DNA of 64,000 nucleotides from Rhodospirillaceae bacterium MC! (GTDB lineage: Bacteria; Pseudomonadota; Alphaproteobacteria; MC1): assembly GCA_002632265.1 (NCBI GenBank), contig NQOV01000006.1, positions 1 to 64,000 of the forward strand, read 5' to 3'. This document shows positions 9,576-39,452 of the stretch, in pieces (the stretch's first letter is position 1; each line of letters begins with the position of its first letter). Made by a program: the position numbers and the translations under genes. The notes under the pieces are model-generated. The model was given only the letters and a program-made list of their open reading frames with translations, made no database searches and was not told the DNA's origin.

Positions 9576-9760
9576 TTTGTCTTGCCAGACGGGCCGAACA
9601 AAGCTGTTCGATCGCATATAGGGGGAATATGTAACAAGTTTAGACTTTCGATATTATTATTTTGCTTGTATTTACATCTTTATTATTATATTATATAAAT
9701 AATACCTTTTACTATATTCAAAAGGTGTACTATTAAACAATTAAAATAAAGGTTAACAAA

Positions 9761-15736: not shown

Positions 15737-15810
15737 ACCTAACATAAAGACCCCTAACACACTAACTTTATCTACACCCTACCCACCTTAACAGATACTC
15801 GCAATCTTTG

Positions 15811-15926
15811 AATATTCTCTATTCCATATAATAACAAAACATGACATATAAAAATAGTTGTTGTATATTGAGCTTGTTATTATATTTTCTTTATGATGTT
15901 CTGTTATAATATGGAATAGAGAATAA
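15811..15926. repeat. Long inverted repeat between symporter gene and rho
   Basis: Arms 15811-15842 and about 15894-15926 are imperfect complements over some 30 nt (TATTCTCTATTCCATAT against ATATGGAATAGAGAATA), with a loop of about 50 nt. It could be a cruciform, a small non-autonomous element or a terminator region for the symporter gene. No transposase is present. Confidence 0.6.
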
Positions 15927-15960
15927 TATCGCTATGTTTAATATGCCAATATTTTATATT

Positions 15961-15999
15961 TTGTGTGTGCTGGCCTATATATTAGGCCAGCACACACAA
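15961..15999. repeat. Perfect hairpin with GTGCTGGCCTA core
   Basis: A 17-bp perfect stem (15961-15977 and 15983-15999) with a 5-nt loop. The core GTGCTGGCCTA is shared with the hairpin at 29779-29821. The rest of the stretch 16000-16256 is an A- and C-rich, G-poor sequence with ACAC-type low complexity and no convincing gene. Confidence 0.8.
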
Positions 16000-16256
16000 A
16001 TAACCTAATAACACAAAAGAGAATACGACACAATACAATACGACGCAACGCAACATTACAGGAAACACAACACACTAAGCTAAGCACACTAAACACAAGA
16101 TACAAGACAATGTACAGTAAACACACAACAGTATACAGATCAAACAATCTTTATACTGCCATGTCAACCAAATAAAAAGCCATAAATAAAGCAGAAACTT
16201 TTATTTAGGATCTATTCTCACAAGTAAGCCAAACCAAACAGACAGGCAATTATACT

Positions 16257-17904: not shown

Positions 17905-18350
17905 ACTTACCACAATCCGCAGGATTGGGAAAAAGCTCATACTATGCACTTAATAAATAGGGCGACATGTACTCACATCCACATAACCCCTAATCTAAAG
18001 TACAATTAACCCACTTACCGCAAGCCTTAGGATTGGGAGAAATGGGATAAGATGTGCTTATAAATAGAGCGACATGTACTCACATCCACATAACCCCTAA
18101 TCTAAAGTACAGATCAGCCCACTTACCGCAAGCCTTAGGATTGGGAGAAATGGGATAAGATGTGCTTATAAATAGAGCGACATGTACTCACATCTACATA
18201 ACCCCTAATCTAAAGTACAATTAACCCACTTACCGCAAGCCTTAGGATTGGGAGAAATGGGCTAAGATGTGCTTGTAAATAGGGCGACGTGTACTCACGT
18301 CTACATAAGCCCTAAGGTAAGGTGCAGATTAGCCCATTTATCACAATCCT
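17905..18350. repeat. Tandem hairpin array, about 107-bp units, after priA
   Basis: Four copies of a 107-108 bp unit. The segment GCGACATGTACTCAC begins at 17962, 18069 and 18177, and in altered form (GCGACGTGTACTCAC) at 18284. Each unit folds on itself: GATGTG pairs with CACATC, and in the last unit AGGGC..GCCCT and GACGTG..CACGTC pair. The array ends at the priA stop codon. The DNA from 17523 to 17904 is AT-rich and partly G-poor, with no gene seen. Confidence 0.82.
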
Positions 18351-21622: not shown

Positions 21623-22033
21623 GGGAAAAAGTGCCCCTTAGGTGTTACTACCTAAGCCATGACTAAAGACATATGAAGAGTGCTATTTCACGCAATTTAC
21701 CAAATTCTGGGAAAAAGTACCCCTTAGATGTTTTTAGGCGATACGTACATGTATATGTACTACCTAAGCCATGATTAAAGACATATAAAGAGTGCTTTCT
21801 CACGCAATTTACCAAATTGTGGGAAAAAGTGCCCCTTAGGTGTTTTTAATCATGGCGTACATGTATATGTACTACCTAAGCCATGATTAAAGACATCTAA
21901 AGAGTGCTATTTCACGCAATTTACTAAATTGTGGGAAAAAGTACCCCTTAGATGTTTTTAGGCGATACGTACATGTATATGTACTACCTAAGTATCGGCT
22001 AAAGACATATAAGGGGTGCTTTTTCCCACAATT
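21623..22033. repeat. Tandem array of four large hairpins after the LpxL-type gene
   Basis: Units begin with GGGAAAAAGT at 21623, 21709, 21821 and 21933 (spacings 86, 112 and 112 bp). Each folds into a long stem capped by GTACATGTATATGTAC, except the first, which lacks this centre. Unit 3 has the arm pair AATCATGG/CCATGATT, unit 4 has GATAC/GTATC, and unit 2 mixes the two. The array ends at the stop codon of the acyltransferase gene. The stretch 21383-21622 is G-poor and shows no gene. Confidence 0.85.
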
Positions 22034-22969
22034 TTAGGGTTTCCAGCGGTTGTGGTACCATAACCATTGTTCAGGATCATTTCTGATCCACTCTTCGAAC
22101 ACTACGTATAAACGTTTGATGTTATGTAGGGTGTCTTCTCTTAGGTTGTTGTGAACTCGCTCTAGGGGGAATTCTTCGATTAGTACTTCGAATTTTGTTG
22201 GATCGTCTAAACGTCTTAAACCTGTTGAGAGTAGAATTGTTTTGTTATATTTTAGGGCGGAACGAATGGCGGTTATGGGTACCCATGCCTCTTTGCCGAA
22301 AAAGGGGATTTGGATTCCTTCTTTTAGGCGATGATCCATTAGAATCCCGTAGGATACTTTTTTTAACATTCTTGCTAGATACATACTGCCATCACGTCCT
22401 TTAGGGAGCATATATTCACGTTTTGGAGCGTTTTGGGTATTGATCCATTCCATATAGGGGTTATTTTGCTTTCTGTAGATTCCGTATAATTCGATGTCGA
22501 AGAATTGCCATGCGGTTTGAAGTAGCAATTCCCAATTTCCCAAGTGGGCTGATACATATACCGCTCCGTTGGGATTGGCTTTGGCTATCTCTATGGCTTT
22601 TTTACTTTCTTCTGGCACGTAGATAAATGATTTTTCTTTACAATCCTTATCATCTGTTATTAGGGCGTTACTTGAGTTAATGATTTCCAAGATCACACGT
22701 GAAAAGTTCTTCCATGATTCCAACATGATACGCTCTTTTTCTTCCTGTGGCATCTCTGGGAAAGCCAGATCAAGACCGATTTGAGCATATTTCTTTTTTC
22801 TTTTAGCAAAAGGCGTCTTATACAAAACACCCCCCAACCACGCACCGAAATTCGAAGAGGCATGAAAGGATGTTTTTCTTATTATTCCATTAATCACAAT
22901 ACGAGCTAGGATATTTTGAGTCTGATAACTTATTAGTTTATGTAATGGAAGATTATGCTTATTGAACAT
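22034..22969 (-). CDS. LpxL/HtrB-type lipid A acyltransferase
   Basis: 311 residues of the lysophospholipid acyltransferase family. It transfers a secondary acyl chain to lipid A at the inner membrane. The catalytic HxxxxE motif is HLGNWE near residue 142, preceded by GAVYVSA; later blocks (GILMDHRLKEGIQIPFFG) and the C-terminal PEQWLWYHNRWKP are typical. Which acyl position it modifies cannot be told. The stop codon touches the hairpin array at 21623-22033. Confidence 0.9.
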   Translation of the reverse strand: MFNKHNLPLHKLISYQTQNILARIVINGIIRKTSFHASSNFGAWLGGVLYKTPFAKRKKKYAQIGLDLAFPEMPQEEKERIMLESWKNFSRVILEIINSSNALITDDKDCKEKSFIYVPEESKKAIEIAKANPNGAVYVSAHLGNWELLLQTAWQFFDIELYGIYRKQNNPYMEWINTQNAPKREYMLPKGRDGSMYLARMLKKVSYGILMDHRLKEGIQIPFFGKEAWVPITAIRSALKYNKTILLSTGLRRLDDPTKFEVLIEEFPLERVHNNLREDTLHNIKRLYVVFEEWIRNDPEQWLWYHNRWKP

Positions 22970-28373: not shown

Positions 28374-28814
28374 ATGACTAATGATGAAAATATTTTAGGG
28401 AAGTGTATGTATTTCACTACTGGTTCTTTATCGAGATGTGTGAACGATGTCGCAAATATTCACTTTGAAGATCTCGGAATCTCGCCGAGCCATGCCTTTT
28501 TGTTGGTGGTAATCGATAAAAAAGATAAAGCAAACATCAAAGACCTAGCCTCTGAACTCAATCTTGCCCATTCTACAGTATCAAGAAATCTAGAACTGCA
28601 CATAAAAAAAGGCTACCTAATAAAAACCACAGAAAGCCGAAGTACCTTTGTCCACCTTACCGAATCAGGACAAGAAATCCTACAACAAATCCACCACCGC
28701 TGGCAAAAAATCCACGCCGACTTCCTCGACGCCTTCGACGGCAATGAAGAAGAATACATAAAATTCAACCGCCAAGCCCTATCCATCTTCGAAAAACTCC
28801 ATAAAAAATTATAG
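28374..28814 (+). CDS. MarR-family transcriptional regulator
   Basis: 146 residues with the winged-helix pattern of MarR: ANIKDLASELNLAHSTVSRN as the DNA-reading helix region, followed by the wing (GYLIKTTESRSTFVHLTESG) and a C-terminal dimerisation helix. Ligand unknown. The last third of the gene is notably C-rich in synonymous positions compared with the first part. The 34-bp repeat array starts 35 bp after its stop. Confidence 0.88.
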   Translation: MTNDENILGKCMYFTTGSLSRCVNDVANIHFEDLGISPSHAFLLVVIDKKDKANIKDLASELNLAHSTVSRNLELHIKKGYLIKTTESRSTFVHLTESGQEILQQIHHRWQKIHADFLDAFDGNEEEYIKFNRQALSIFEKLHKKL

Positions 28815-28848
28815 AATGGTTTTATATCTCGCTCTTTGTGGCTGACGT

Positions 28849-29745
28849 CTTAACAGGCGATCCCCCTATCCGACCCATGCAACCTTAACAGACGATCCCC
28901 CTATCCGACCATGTAATCTTGGTAGGTGTTCGATCTATACGAGCAAGTAGTCTTGACAGGCGGTCGCCCTATCCGAGTAAGTAATCTTGACAGGTGGTCG
29001 ATCTATCCGAGTAAGTAATCTTGACAGGTGGTCGCCCTATACGAGCATGTAGTCTTGGTAGGTGGTCGATCTATACGAGCATGTAATCTTGACAGGTGGT
29101 CGCCCTATACGAGCATGTATCCTTTATAGGCGATCCCCCTATACGAGCATGCAACCTTGACAGGCGATCCCCCTATCCGAGCAAGTAGTCTTGACAGGCG
29201 TTCGATCTATCCGAGCATGTAGTCTTAACAGGCGGCCGCCCTATCCGACCATGTAATCTTGACAGGTGGTCGCTCTATCCGAGCATGTAGTCTTGACATG
29301 CGATCGCCTTATCCGAGCAAGTAGTCTTGACAGGCGATCGCCCTATCCGAGAAAGTAATCTTGACTAGCGGTCGATCTATCCGACCATGCAACCTTGACA
29401 GGTGGTCGCCCTATCCGAGCATGTAGTCTTGACAGGCGGTCGCCCTATCCGAACATGTAATCTTGACAGGCGATCCCCCTATCCGAGCATGTAATCTTGA
29501 CAGGTGGTCGCTCTATACGAGCATGTAGTCTTGACAGGCGGACGCCATATCCGAGTAAGTAATCTTGACAGACGTTCGCCCTATCCGAGCATGTAATCTT
29601 GACAGGTGGTCGCCCTATCCGAATAAGTAGTCTTGACATGCGATCGCCTTATCCGAGCAAGTAGTCTTGGTAGGCGTTCGCCCTATCCGAGCATGCAGTC
29701 TTGACAGGCGGCCGCCCTATCCGAGCATGTATCCTTGGTAGGTGG
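28849..29745. repeat. Array of 26 diverged 34-bp repeats
   Basis: Twenty-six consecutive units (one of 35 bp, the rest 34 bp) and a partial 27th at 29734. A typical unit reads CTTGACAGG, a variable core, CTATCCGAGCATGTAAT. TTGACA occurs in 18 of the 26. The cores vary around the palindrome GGCGNNCGCC. Only units 14 and 24 are identical. G+C is about half, far above the surroundings. There are no identical repeats with unique spacers, so it is not CRISPR. No open frame runs through it convincingly. Confidence 0.92.
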
Positions 29746-29778
29746 GTTGAACGGGGTTTGTTTAGTTGGGTGTGGGTT

Positions 29779-29821
29779 ATTTTGTTGTGCTGGCCTAATA
29801 TTTAGGCCAGCACAACAAAAT
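29779..29821. repeat. Perfect hairpin with GTGCTGGCCTA core, copy 2
   Basis: A 20-bp perfect stem (29779-29798 with 29802-29821) around a 3-nt loop, at the right edge of the 34-bp array. The core matches the hairpin at 15961-15999. A run of short TAATCAT-type repeats (29850-29890) and a 10-bp inverted repeat (29889-29898 with 29913-29922) follow. The rest, to 30066, shows no gene. Confidence 0.85.
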
Positions 29822-30066
29822 AATAATAGAATAGAATGCAAGCTCTATAATCATCTATAATCATTGATAATCATTGATAATCATATATAGTTATCTATCA
29901 TAATATATCATTATAGATAACTAATTGTTACGCATTAGAAGTATATGTGATTAAGCATGCTTAAGGGGTTTAGGGGAGTAAGGTAAAAAATAAAATATGA
30001 TTTTTTATAGATGTTAGTTTTCTAATGTGTGGAATTGTGGAGCATTGATGTGTTTGGCGAAAGGGT

Positions 30067-30102
30067 AAAAGGTTATTCTTTCAAATGAAAGAATAACCTT
30101 TT
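30067..30102 (-). terminator. Terminator after the flagellin gene
   Basis: A perfect 16-bp stem (30067-30082 with 30087-30102) and a 4-nt loop. The stem ends are AAAA and TTTT, so it can act in either direction. It lies 30 bp past the flagellin stop codon on the minus strand. Confidence 0.85.
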
Positions 30103-30132: not shown

Positions 30133-31002
30133 TTAATTAGCGTTATTGCCGTTACCTGTGCTAGTTACTAGATCTAGTACGAATGCACCTTGTTTAGCTG
30201 ATAAGGCTAGAGTGCTTTGGGCTAGTTTGTTTTGGACGTTGGATGCGGTTAGTTCAGTGGCATTTTTTAGTTGGTCCACATCGGTTTCGCTATCGGCACT
30301 GTCTTTCATGAAAGTACTATACTTTTCATTGAAATCCTTACGAGAATCCAACAGGCTAGTTTTTGCACTTACTTCGATGTTGCTAGCTTTTAAAGTAGCG
30401 GTAGCTTGATCCAATAAGCTTTTCGCCCCTTCAAGACCAGCACCGCCAGAACTGGCTTGAGCAACCGCACCGTTAATATTGATATTCGGATTGTTTGAAG
30501 AAACGTCAAGGGCTTGTAATTTAATGGCGTGATCAGGATTTGGCCCCACTTGAATGGTTGAAGAGCTTTGATCATTGTCAAGAAGAGATTTGCCGTTATA
30601 TTTAGCGTCGCTTACCATGTCATCATATTGGGATGCGGTTTCGCTTAAAGCACCTTGAAGAGCGTTGAAATCTTCGCCACTGTCGGCATTTTGCATACCG
30701 CTTACATATGCTTGCATCATACCTACCATACCCTCGGCACTTTCGATACCTGTTGACATAGTTTTTACAGCGTCGATCCCTTGAGTAAGGCCTTCTTTAG
30801 TTTTGTCGAAAGTAGAAGCACGATCATATACTTCAGTTGAGTGAATTAAAGTAACCGAATCTTCATTATGAGCGGCCATACCACCGCCGATTTTACTACC
30901 TGTAGAAAGTTTACCGTTAGTTGAATCAACATTTCTTTGAGCAGATTTCACACCATATAAATTTGTTCTTACTTGTGAATTTAAATTGATAGAATTTACC
31001 AT
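30133..31002 (-). CDS. Short flagellin-like protein
   Basis: 289 residues from the internal ATG at 31002, which has AAGGA upstream and gives the expected MVNSINLNSQ start; an in-frame start at 31062 would add an atypical leader. The N-terminal D0/D1 region (VRTNLYGVKSAQRNV, NGKLSTGSKI, then GIDAVKTMSTGIESAEGM) and the C-terminal coiled region (TASNVQNKLAQSTLALSAKQ) are flagellin-type, with almost no variable central domain. There are no other flagellar genes in the window. It could form a filament or be a secreted relative. Confidence 0.82.
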   Translation of the reverse strand: MVNSINLNSQVRTNLYGVKSAQRNVDSTNGKLSTGSKIGGGMAAHNEDSVTLIHSTEVYDRASTFDKTKEGLTQGIDAVKTMSTGIESAEGMVGMMQAYVSGMQNADSGEDFNALQGALSETASQYDDMVSDAKYNGKSLLDNDQSSSTIQVGPNPDHAIKLQALDVSSNNPNININGAVAQASSGGAGLEGAKSLLDQATATLKASNIEVSAKTSLLDSRKDFNEKYSTFMKDSADSETDVDQLKNATELTASNVQNKLAQSTLALSAKQGAFVLDLVTSTGNGNNAN

Positions 31003-31329
31003 GTTTTGATATTCCTTATTTCTTAAGTTAAATATGCCAAGGTGGGAAAATACAATTACCATTACTTGATATTACTATCCTAACATTTTATTAACTAAAA
31101 AGCAACAAAAATTTTTAAAATATTATTTTTCTGGATAGAAACTGGCTCTTTCCCTTAACTTCTAGCATAAATATAAAATCCATTGTTAACACATTCTTAA
31201 CAATATCCCTAAAAGTAGCCCTAAAAAAATCCCAAAGAATCCCCTAAAAATCTCTCATAAAGTTAACAATAAAATATAACCTACATTAGTATCGTTTCCC
31301 AATGCAGATTAGCCCCGTTATCACCCCCC

Positions 31330-34017: not shown

Positions 34018-35214
34018 CTACTTATCTTTATCTTCTGATGTTAATATGGGAATAAGCGTTGGTTTATCGTTCTTAGTTTGTTGCTTTTTAGAATCCTTAT
34101 CTTTAGAGTTCTTATCTTTAGAATCTTTATCTTTAGAGTTCTTATCTTTAGAATCTTTATCTTTAGAGTTCTTATCTTTAGAATCCTTATCTTTAGAATC
34201 TTTGTCTTTAGAATTCTTGTCATCAGGTTCGAAGTTCTTCGGTGTATCTATGGGCATTCTAAAGTTCTTTAGCTCATTTTCCTTTACTGGCAAAGGAGCA
34301 TTCGCCAATATTAAGGATGGCTTAGAGATTCTATTTGAGCCTAAACTAAAAAAAGCTGTAGTATGAAAGTATCCGTAAAGATCTTGTTTTTGTTGGAAAA
34401 AATTATCTAAAGCGAGCTTAACCGCTGGTTGATACTTACTATCATACATCTTAAATGTTCTAAGATTTTCACTAAGATACGCAGTATTTAATTTATCCAT
34501 ATTTAAGCCTGCGATATTCTTATTAACCAGATGAAACTTAACGAAATATATTTGGCTCGCAATTTTTAAGATATCTAACTTATTTTGTGGAATTACTAGA
34601 TTATTCACATCAACGGAACTATCCGAGCTTAAGCTATAATTGGGATTATCGATACTTAGGTGGATTGTGGTAGGTTTTTTGTTCACTTTAGATAGTGCTA
34701 TCTTGATGTTATTTAAGGCAAAAACAATATCAGAACTCGCCGTTATATTGCCATTATCAGATAAAATTACCACAGGATTACTGACCTTCAATTCTCCTAG
34801 ATTTAGAATCTTAATCTTTAAGTTATCTGCTGTTATCTTCTTGCTATTTTTCTCTTTTCCTTTAAGGATATGAAAGAAATCCGCATTTAATGTCCCATGG
34901 GAATCTATAAGTTTAACATGAGCTATCTGGGATAAACTACCACCAAATATCTTATATTTTAAGGATTGAATGCTAATTTTACTCTTCTTAGATGTGGCAG
35001 GAAGTTGGATATTAGCTGTAAAATCGGAAATATTATAACTAAAGTCAGTTAAGGAAATACTTCCACTAAAATCAATCTCTGCGTTTTTATCGAGATTTTT
35101 AACAAGGTTAATAACTTTGCTTTTAATATACGCCTCAACCCCTAAGACCGCCACAAACCCCAAAGCAGATAGAATAACTAAACCCCAAAAGTATCTTTTT
35201 ATTTTTAATGACAT
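34018..35214 (-). CDS. Membrane-anchored protein with Lys/Asp/Ser repeat tail
   Basis: About 398 residues. ATG 35214 is chosen because AAGGTG lies 7 nt before it. One N-terminal membrane helix (residues about 7-28) is followed by a beta-rich region with AsmA-like character (SISLTDFSYNISDFTANI). From about residue 335 the tail repeats SKDKD and SKDKN, encoded by 15-bp units in 30-bp pairs (34091-34222). I do not recognise a precise family. The repeats can change the length of the tail without shifting the frame. Confidence 0.75.
   Translation of the reverse strand: MSLKIKRYFWGLVILSALGFVAVLGVEAYIKSKVINLVKNLDKNAEIDFSGSISLTDFSYNISDFTANIQLPATSKKSKISIQSLKYKIFGGSLSQIAHVKLIDSHGTLNADFFHILKGKEKNSKKITADNLKIKILNLGELKVSNPVVILSDNGNITASSDIVFALNNIKIALSKVNKKPTTIHLSIDNPNYSLSSDSSVDVNNLVIPQNKLDILKIASQIYFVKFHLVNKNIAGLNMDKLNTAYLSENLRTFKMYDSKYQPAVKLALDNFFQQKQDLYGYFHTTAFFSLGSNRISKPSLILANAPLPVKENELKNFRMPIDTPKNFEPDDKNSKDKDSKDKDSKDKNSKDKDSKDKNSKDKDSKDKNSKDKDSKKQQTKNDKPTLIPILTSEDKDK
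34091..34222. repeat. In-frame 15/30-bp tandem repeat inside a gene
   Basis: Alternating 15-bp units (TCTTTATCTTTAGAG and TTCTTATCTTTAGAA, with variants) encode the SKDKD/SKDKN tail of the membrane-anchored protein. The unit is a multiple of three, so slippage changes protein length rather than switching the gene off. Confidence 0.85.
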
Positions 35215-35291
35215 CAACAAACACCTTAATATAGATTGAGATAAAAAAAAGTAACTGCCGAATTCAACAATTACTTTCTAATTAGTATTTA

Positions 35292-38882: not shown

Positions 38883-39452
38883 GATATTTTAAGATAAAAC
38901 AGTATTTTTTTTCTTATTTCCTAAAAATATTAAATAATTATGATATATTTTCCCACCACCACCCCATAAACACCAAAAAACTCCCACCCCAGCATTCCCC
39001 CACCCCAAAAACTCCCACTTCCCCCAATCCACCAACCAACAAAATTAATTTAAACCATCCCCGCCACCCCTTTCTCCCACCTAATACGCCCCACCATCAT
39101 CCCACCAAAATAAAATACCCCACGACCTTAATAAGACAATACCCACACACACCCGAATCCCACCTCTCCCATAAACATCCCACAATTTATATATTATCTA
39201 TTATTTATCATTAATGGCCTAATATAAAACTTACTTAATATATTAGTATATCATATATAATCTAACTATTTTTATAGAAACTCGTATTGTTACTCCATAC
39301 TATAATAAAACATCGCAAATAAAAAGGGTTATTTTATATTGTATTTATTATTATATTTTCTGGCCTAATATAAGTATATAATAAACACTTCCGTATCTAC
39401 TTTAATATTATTTTTCTAGTTTATCATTGATTTTCTTTCTACTATTAATTTA
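38883..39452. other. Gene-free, strand-biased intergenic region
   Basis: No supported gene. From 38941 to 39180 the plus strand has only seven G in 240 bases and is very rich in A and C. An open frame across it gives a Pro/His/Thr-rich peptide with no family features, as expected of such base bias. The segment 39215-39452 is AT-rich and holds two TGGCCTAATATAA elements (39212 and 39361), halves of the GTGCTGGCCTA hairpins. Confidence 0.7.

What the first reader, a model, noticed from the sequence alone, without database searches (positions are those of the whole stretch)
28849..29745. Mosaic array of 26 different 34-bp repeats
The array has an almost perfect 34-bp period, but nearly every unit is different: only units 14 and 24 are identical. 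Variation is limited to a few positions, each with two or three states, shuffled between units, which looks like recombination or selection rather than simple copying. The core approaches GGCGNNCGCC with a variable centre (AT, TT, GC, GA, GT), and 18 units contain TTGACA. The array is much richer in G+C than its surroundings and sits between convergent genes.
Basis: seen in the sequence. Interest (0 to 1): 0.72.

Follow-up and report, generated by a model that had tools for sequence, protein, structure and literature searches.

The report
Dispersed hairpin repeat with expanded array
The 26-unit repeat is one of the longest arrays in an apparently undescribed family of non-coding repeat elements scattered behind genes throughout this bacterium's genome; most copies end in a DNA hairpin whose two arms change together, which makes the family a good natural test of how repeats and palindromes copy-correct themselves.

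Summary
The array is real: 26 units of 34 bp (the first 35 bp), 28848-29731, 52% G+C in a 35% G+C window, 18 TTGACA. Two pairs of units are identical (6=8, 14=24), not one. Variable sites are nearly unlinked and neighbours are no more alike than distant units. It is not unique. The same genome (an alphaproteobacterium, the only member of its order held here) carries about 30 clusters of related 31-35-bp units sharing the anchor TCTTGACAGACGGTC. In 23 of 31 clusters a palindrome around GGCCTAATATTTAGGCC follows, always on the 3' side (52 short copies genome-wide; at most 2 in any of 384 other alphaproteobacteria). The elements lie just after stop codons; no palindrome lies between divergent genes. 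Palindrome arms differ between copies yet pair almost perfectly (627 of 631 pairs, one G.T), and related copies differ only by double, matching arm changes. Best reading: a new lineage-specific family of modular, non-coding interspersed repeats, built like pneumococcal BOX elements, whose tandem module is reshuffled by unit-to-unit recombination and whose palindrome is kept perfect by template-switch correction. Mobility is inferred, not shown; a regulatory or protein-binding function is untested.

The parts
28848..29731 (+). Tandem array, 26 units of 34 bp (unit 1 35 bp), consensus TCTTGACAGGCGGTCGCCCTATCCGAGCATGTAA; non-coding (no frame runs through it)
29730..29776 (+). Exit module (degenerate here): GGTTGAAC...GTTTGTTTAGTT, counterpart of GGTCCGAACATAGC..TGTTCGATC found in 34 other places
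   Evidence: alignment A1, covariation; the window copy itself is not found by model R1 at E<=0.01
29777..29823 (.). Perfect palindrome, 22-bp arms, 3-nt loop, core GGCCTAATATTTAGGCC
28374..28814 (+). Upstream gene, MarR-like regulator (by eye), ends 33 bp before the array
30133..31062 (-). Convergent flagellin-like gene (by eye)
30067..30102 (.). Ordinary bidirectional terminator-like hairpin AAAAGGTTATTCTTTCA/TGAAAGAATAACCTTTT between palindrome and flagellin gene
15960..16000 (.). Second palindrome of the same family in the window (18-bp arms); degenerate unit CCTTAACAGATACTCGCAATCTTTGAAT at 15786 before it
9578..9624 (+). Solitary anchor plus exit hairpin of the same family (E=3.8e-9)
39216..39371 (+). 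Two degenerate GGCCTAATATAA half-sites (39216 and 39362) with family flanks

Best explanation
The array is the expanded tandem module of one copy of a lineage-specific family of modular, non-coding interspersed repeats. A complete copy reads: stop codon of the host gene, one to about 28 tandem 31-35-bp units beginning TCTTGACAGACGGTC, an exit hairpin, an AT-rich spacer, and a palindrome centred on GGCCTA-N5-TAGGCC (or a long form of it of about 110-145 bp). Shown: the family, its fixed order and orientation, its 3' location, its lack of coding. Inferred: copies spread in the past as a non-autonomous mobile or segmentally duplicated element and survive behind genes because they do least harm there. 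Units expand and contract locally and are reshuffled by unequal recombination or conversion between units, which gives the mosaic; short palindromes are kept perfect at the DNA level by hairpin template switching during replication, so arms change in matched pairs. Any effect on 3' mRNA ends (stabilising hairpins) would be secondary and is untested.
For: Related units in about 30 clusters of the same genome, 137 matches at E<1 against none in the reversed sequence. Palindrome 3' of the array in 23 of 23 clusters that have one within 600 bp (p=2e-7). Palindrome core 52 copies here, at most 2 in each of 384 other alphaproteobacterial genomes. Palindromes lie between convergent genes in 25/48 and divergent genes in 0/48 cases; background 38/139 and 22/139. 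Arms: 627 Watson-Crick, 1 G.T, 1 A.C, 2 other, while long forms with a loop of over 100 nt pair at only 105/156 against 555/600 over the first 12 positions (p=2e-14), as expected if a tight loop is needed for correction. Duplicates C5:46.1k and C14:0.5k (94% identical): both arm differences are double and matching; 12 array differences, 10 of them between states seen in other units, none in the last two units or exit hairpin. C1:40k against C1:49.7k: three arm differences, all double. Homology between several copies ends at the outer end of the palindrome (+29). Exit hairpin covariation. BOX elements are modular with variable boxB number, enriched between convergent genes and read as non-autonomous mobile repeats (PMC3049150); template switching can keep stems perfect (PMC8794818).
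Against: Mobility is not shown: no empty site, no target-site duplication, no candidate transposase; the RAYT family Y1_Tnp is absent. The best duplicated pair also shares DNA beyond the palindrome, so it is a segmental duplication rather than a transposition. Eight of 31 clusters have no palindrome within 600 bp. The window's exit module is too degenerate to be recovered by the model. Unlinked sites could also come from hypermutable positions.
Confidence: 0.66

Rival explanations
1. A functional 3'-UTR RNA: units, exit hairpin and palindrome act in the transcript as a stabiliser or 3'-end processing signal, and the pairing is held by selection on the RNA.
For: Arrays begin shortly after the stop codon of a same-strand gene (29 of 31 clusters); the exit hairpin covaries (10 cells with double change, score 0.221 vs 0.147, 0/500 shuffles) and has more G.T than A.C cells (25 vs 7).
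Against: Almost no G.U in 631 palindrome pairs; left arm T-rich and right arm A-rich, the reverse of an intrinsic terminator; 15 of the 25 G.T cells of the exit stem come from one column; the proposed hairpin inside each unit is not kept (outer pair A-C in 37 of 129 units); in convergent gaps the same-strand gene is given by geometry, so only 6 tandem cases against 1 test orientation.
Confidence: 0.17
2. An array of binding sites for a protein (for example a nucleoid or DNA-topology factor acting between convergent genes), with the anchor TCTTGACAGACGGTC as the site.
For: The anchor is the most conserved part of the unit across all arrays; the location between convergent genes resembles gyrase-binding repeats (own knowledge).
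Against: Conservation is also expected from common origin; unit number ranges from 1 to about 28 and some loci keep only a remnant; no candidate protein; not testable here.
Confidence: 0.08
3. A simple local minisatellite without wider meaning: slippage made it and drift diversified it.
For: Unit number differs widely among loci; edge units are degenerate.
Against: The unit is shared with about 30 other loci in a fixed context with exit module and palindrome; neighbours are not more alike than distant units, unlike plain slippage.
Confidence: 0.05
4. CRISPR, type III toxin-antitoxin RNA repeats, or a coding repeat.
For: A unit length of 34 bp falls in the range of such repeats (own knowledge).
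Against: No spacers; next gene is convergent, no toxin gene follows; no frame runs through the array; no Rfam match.
Confidence: 0.01

Closest known systems
BOX elements of Streptococcus pneumoniae and S. suis (PMC3049150)
   Same: Interspersed non-coding modular repeat; outer modules plus a variable number of a central tandem module; hairpins; enriched between convergent genes; no own transposase.
   Different: Different phylum and no known sequence relation (not compared); here up to about 28 tandem units of 31-35 bp, a palindrome only on the 3' side whose arms vary but stay self-complementary; no terminal inverted repeats or target duplication shown.
Double-hairpin elements of fungal mitochondrial DNA (Paquin et al. 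2000, as cited in PMC5910586)
   Same: Short intergenic hairpin repeats proposed to be mobile; arms vary between copies (last point from own knowledge).
   Different: Bacterial; a tandem array in front; a conserved GGCCTA core.
REP/BIME with RAYT transposase
   Same: Palindromic, 3' of genes, tens of copies or more (own knowledge).
   Different: No RAYT (Y1_Tnp) gene in the genome; different architecture.
MIRU and other intergenic minisatellites of mycobacteria
   Same: Intergenic tandem repeats at many loci with variable unit number (own knowledge).
   Different: No exit hairpin and palindrome partner; here nearly all units differ.

Membership tests
BOX-type modular interspersed repeat (as a kind, not by homology) | Several modules in fixed order with a variable number of one tandem module | tested here: met
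BOX-type modular interspersed repeat (as a kind, not by homology) | Enriched between convergent genes, not between divergent genes | tested here: met
BOX-type modular interspersed repeat (as a kind, not by homology) | Evidence of mobility: empty sites, target duplication | tested here: inconclusive
   no relative held; the best duplicated pair is segmental
BOX of streptococci (homology) | Sequence match to boxA/B/C | not tested
   no BOX sequence was compared
REP/BIME-RAYT | Y1_Tnp gene of RAYT type in the genome | tested here: not met
   positive controls found
CRISPR array | Near-identical repeats separated by unique spacers | tested here: not met
   contiguous divergent units
Type III toxin-antitoxin RNA | Tandem repeat followed by a toxin gene on the same strand | tested here: not met
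   next gene is convergent
Intrinsic terminator | GC-rich stem followed by a T-run | tested here: not met
   right arm A-rich, no T-run after the palindrome
Known RNA family (Rfam 15) | Match at gathering score | tested here: not met

The most novel reading that the evidence does not exclude
The elements are a working 3'-end system of this lineage: tandem units and palindrome are actively maintained, unit reshuffling generates functional diversity (for example graded binding of an RNA- or DNA-binding factor), and the self-correcting palindrome is its fixed end.
Probability: 0.12. Interest if true: 0.75.

Novelty: new variant of a known kind. Interest (0 to 1): 0.47.

Why it matters
About 50 palindromes in one genome have different arms that nevertheless pair at 627 of 631 positions, next to long-loop versions that do not. 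This gives a natural test of whether hairpin template switching, rather than selection on RNA, keeps stems perfect. The arrays add several examples of near-complete reassortment between tandem units. Both can be tested directly by comparing close strains.

Tried and rejected
RAYT transposase as partner: none. Rfam: only tRNAs. Homologues in phages and plasmids: none; in up to 384 alphaproteobacterial genomes and 398 genomes of the phylum: none. Exact anchor and palindrome in viral contigs: 24 and 4 single hits in a collection of 2.9 million contigs, taken as chance and not followed. A hairpin inside each unit (RTCT-TGAC-AGRY): the window array shows some covariation of its outer pair (permutation p=0.006, one of 435 pairs), but other arrays break it, so it is rejected as a conserved structure. 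Sense-strand RNA asymmetry: mixed. Promoter reading of TTGACA: rejected, the location is 3' of genes. Naming the organism: purA hits reach at most 61%, so only the class is given. A first loose unit regex was discarded.

Full report
Observation. The window holds 26 contiguous units at 28848-29731, period 34, 81% match. Unit 1 has one extra base. G+C is 0.516 against 0.347 in the window; TTGACA occurs 18 times. Two pairs of units are identical, 6=8 and 14=24. Fourteen columns are invariant; among 18 informative ones 65 of 153 pairs show all four state combinations, distant pairs are barely more associated than chance, and neighbouring units are as different as shuffled ones. No reading frame runs through the array. 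So the mosaic character is real, with a small correction.

The array is not alone. A search of the window's own genome (2.05 Mb, 19 contigs, 95.5% complete) gave 16 places. A profile of 101 units found 137 unit matches at E<1 in the fetched stretches and none in the same stretches reversed. Long arrays are 33 bp x about 21 (C7:69.2k), 34 bp x about 28 (C11:176.5k), 33 bp x about 15 (C6), 33 bp x about 10 (C11:264k), 35 bp x about 11 and 33 bp x 6 (C5), 35 bp x 8 (C18) and others. Most share the anchor TCTTGACAGACGGTC; the second half of the unit is locus-specific. The other long arrays are mosaic too; only two of those tested show closer similarity of neighbours.

Architecture. The last anchor of most arrays runs into an exit module, GGTCCGAACATAGC...TGTTCGATC, which forms a stem with covariation: ten cells with double change, twelve further pair types, none of 500 shuffles reaching the score, and slid controls at 30-42% paired against 88%. 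A covariance model finds 34 copies in the genome at E<=0.01; the window's own copy is too diverged to be among them. Beyond an AT-rich spacer follows a palindrome around GGCCTA-N5-TAGGCC, 52 copies in the genome and none for the reversed pattern. In roughly a dozen or more places the palindrome has a long form, GGCCTAA - about 110-145 bp in all - TTAGGCC. Of 31 array clusters, 23 have a palindrome within 600 bp, always on the 3' side. At C4:5.4k two clusters face each other across one long-form palindrome. Alignments between several pairs of copies end at the outer end of the palindrome arm.

Position. Clusters start shortly after a stop codon. Among palindromes 25 of 48 lie between convergent genes and none between divergent ones; the gaps of the same stretches give 38 and 22 of 139 (Fisher p 0.0025 and 0.0013; genes here are simple ORF calls, and the background includes the same gaps).

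What keeps the palindromes perfect. Arms differ strongly between copies, but 627 of 631 pairs are Watson-Crick and only one is G.T (the arms were followed with a penalty for mismatches, so their ends are where pairing stops). Selection on an RNA stem would be expected to leave G.U pairs. The long forms, with loops of over 100 bases, pair at only 105 of the first 156 positions (12 per copy) against 555 of 600 in the short forms, a comparison free of that end effect. In the 94%-identical pair C5:46.1k and C14:0.5k both arm differences are double and matching, and in C1:40k against C1:49.7k all three are. This is what replication template switching predicts (PMC8794818). The step from pattern to mechanism is inference.

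What makes the mosaic. In the C5/C14 pair the first three full units differ at 12 positions, and for 10 of these both states occur at the same position in other units; the last two units and the exit hairpin are identical. Such clustered swaps point to exchange between units rather than new mutation. One pair of loci is a small sample.

What it is not. Not CRISPR, not a type III toxin-antitoxin repeat, not coding, not an intrinsic terminator (arms have the wrong polarity), no Rfam family, no RAYT gene. Among 384 other alphaproteobacterial genomes none has more than two palindrome cores and none has the array; none of 371 has the exit module, and none of 398 other genomes of the phylum matches a whole element. 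The genome is the only one of its order held, so its history by descent could not be tested.

Comparison. The nearest published kind is the BOX element: modular, with a variable number of boxB, enriched between convergent genes and read as a non-autonomous mobile repeat (PMC3049150). The present family matches in design and position; mobility is not shown, and it differs in its large tandem expansion and its one-sided self-correcting palindrome. I file it as a new variant of modular interspersed repeats, lineage-specific as far as sampled. The literature searches found no description of it, but they cover open-licence papers only.

Noticed in passing
window 17953-18315 and 21646-22034; L146 1408-1950, L149 1346-1866, L160 306-652 and 7680-7992, L170 3592-3923 and 6775-7076: A second set of genome-wide tandem repeats, 105-112 bp per unit, units folding into long stems (for example -48 kcal/mol, L160 7680) with different sequence at different loci.
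   Followed up: partly
L161 3052-3194, L173 2087-2230, L166 1349-1491 and others: Long form of the palindrome: about 144 bp with imperfect inverted repeats and GGCCTAA ends, resembling a MITE; no target duplication recognised.
   Followed up: partly
window 15814-15925: Another inverted repeat (ATTCTCTATTCCATATAATAACA / TGTTATAATATGGAATAGAGAAT) nested between a degenerate unit and the palindrome at 15960.
   Followed up: no
window 34087-34218: 15/30-bp tandem repeat inside the 3' part of a gene on the minus strand (34018-35220), encoding a KDKDSKDKNSKDKDS repeat.
   Followed up: no
L145 2302-2940: 36-bp tandem repeat, 17.7 copies, period divisible by three, lying within a long open frame.
   Followed up: no
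G000 C5 end and C14 start (L155 14280-14800, L177 190-710): Two contigs end in the same 94%-identical stretch holding an element; the shared stretch begins inside the first array unit, after different upstream genes, so an array may have been a recombination breakpoint.
   Followed up: partly
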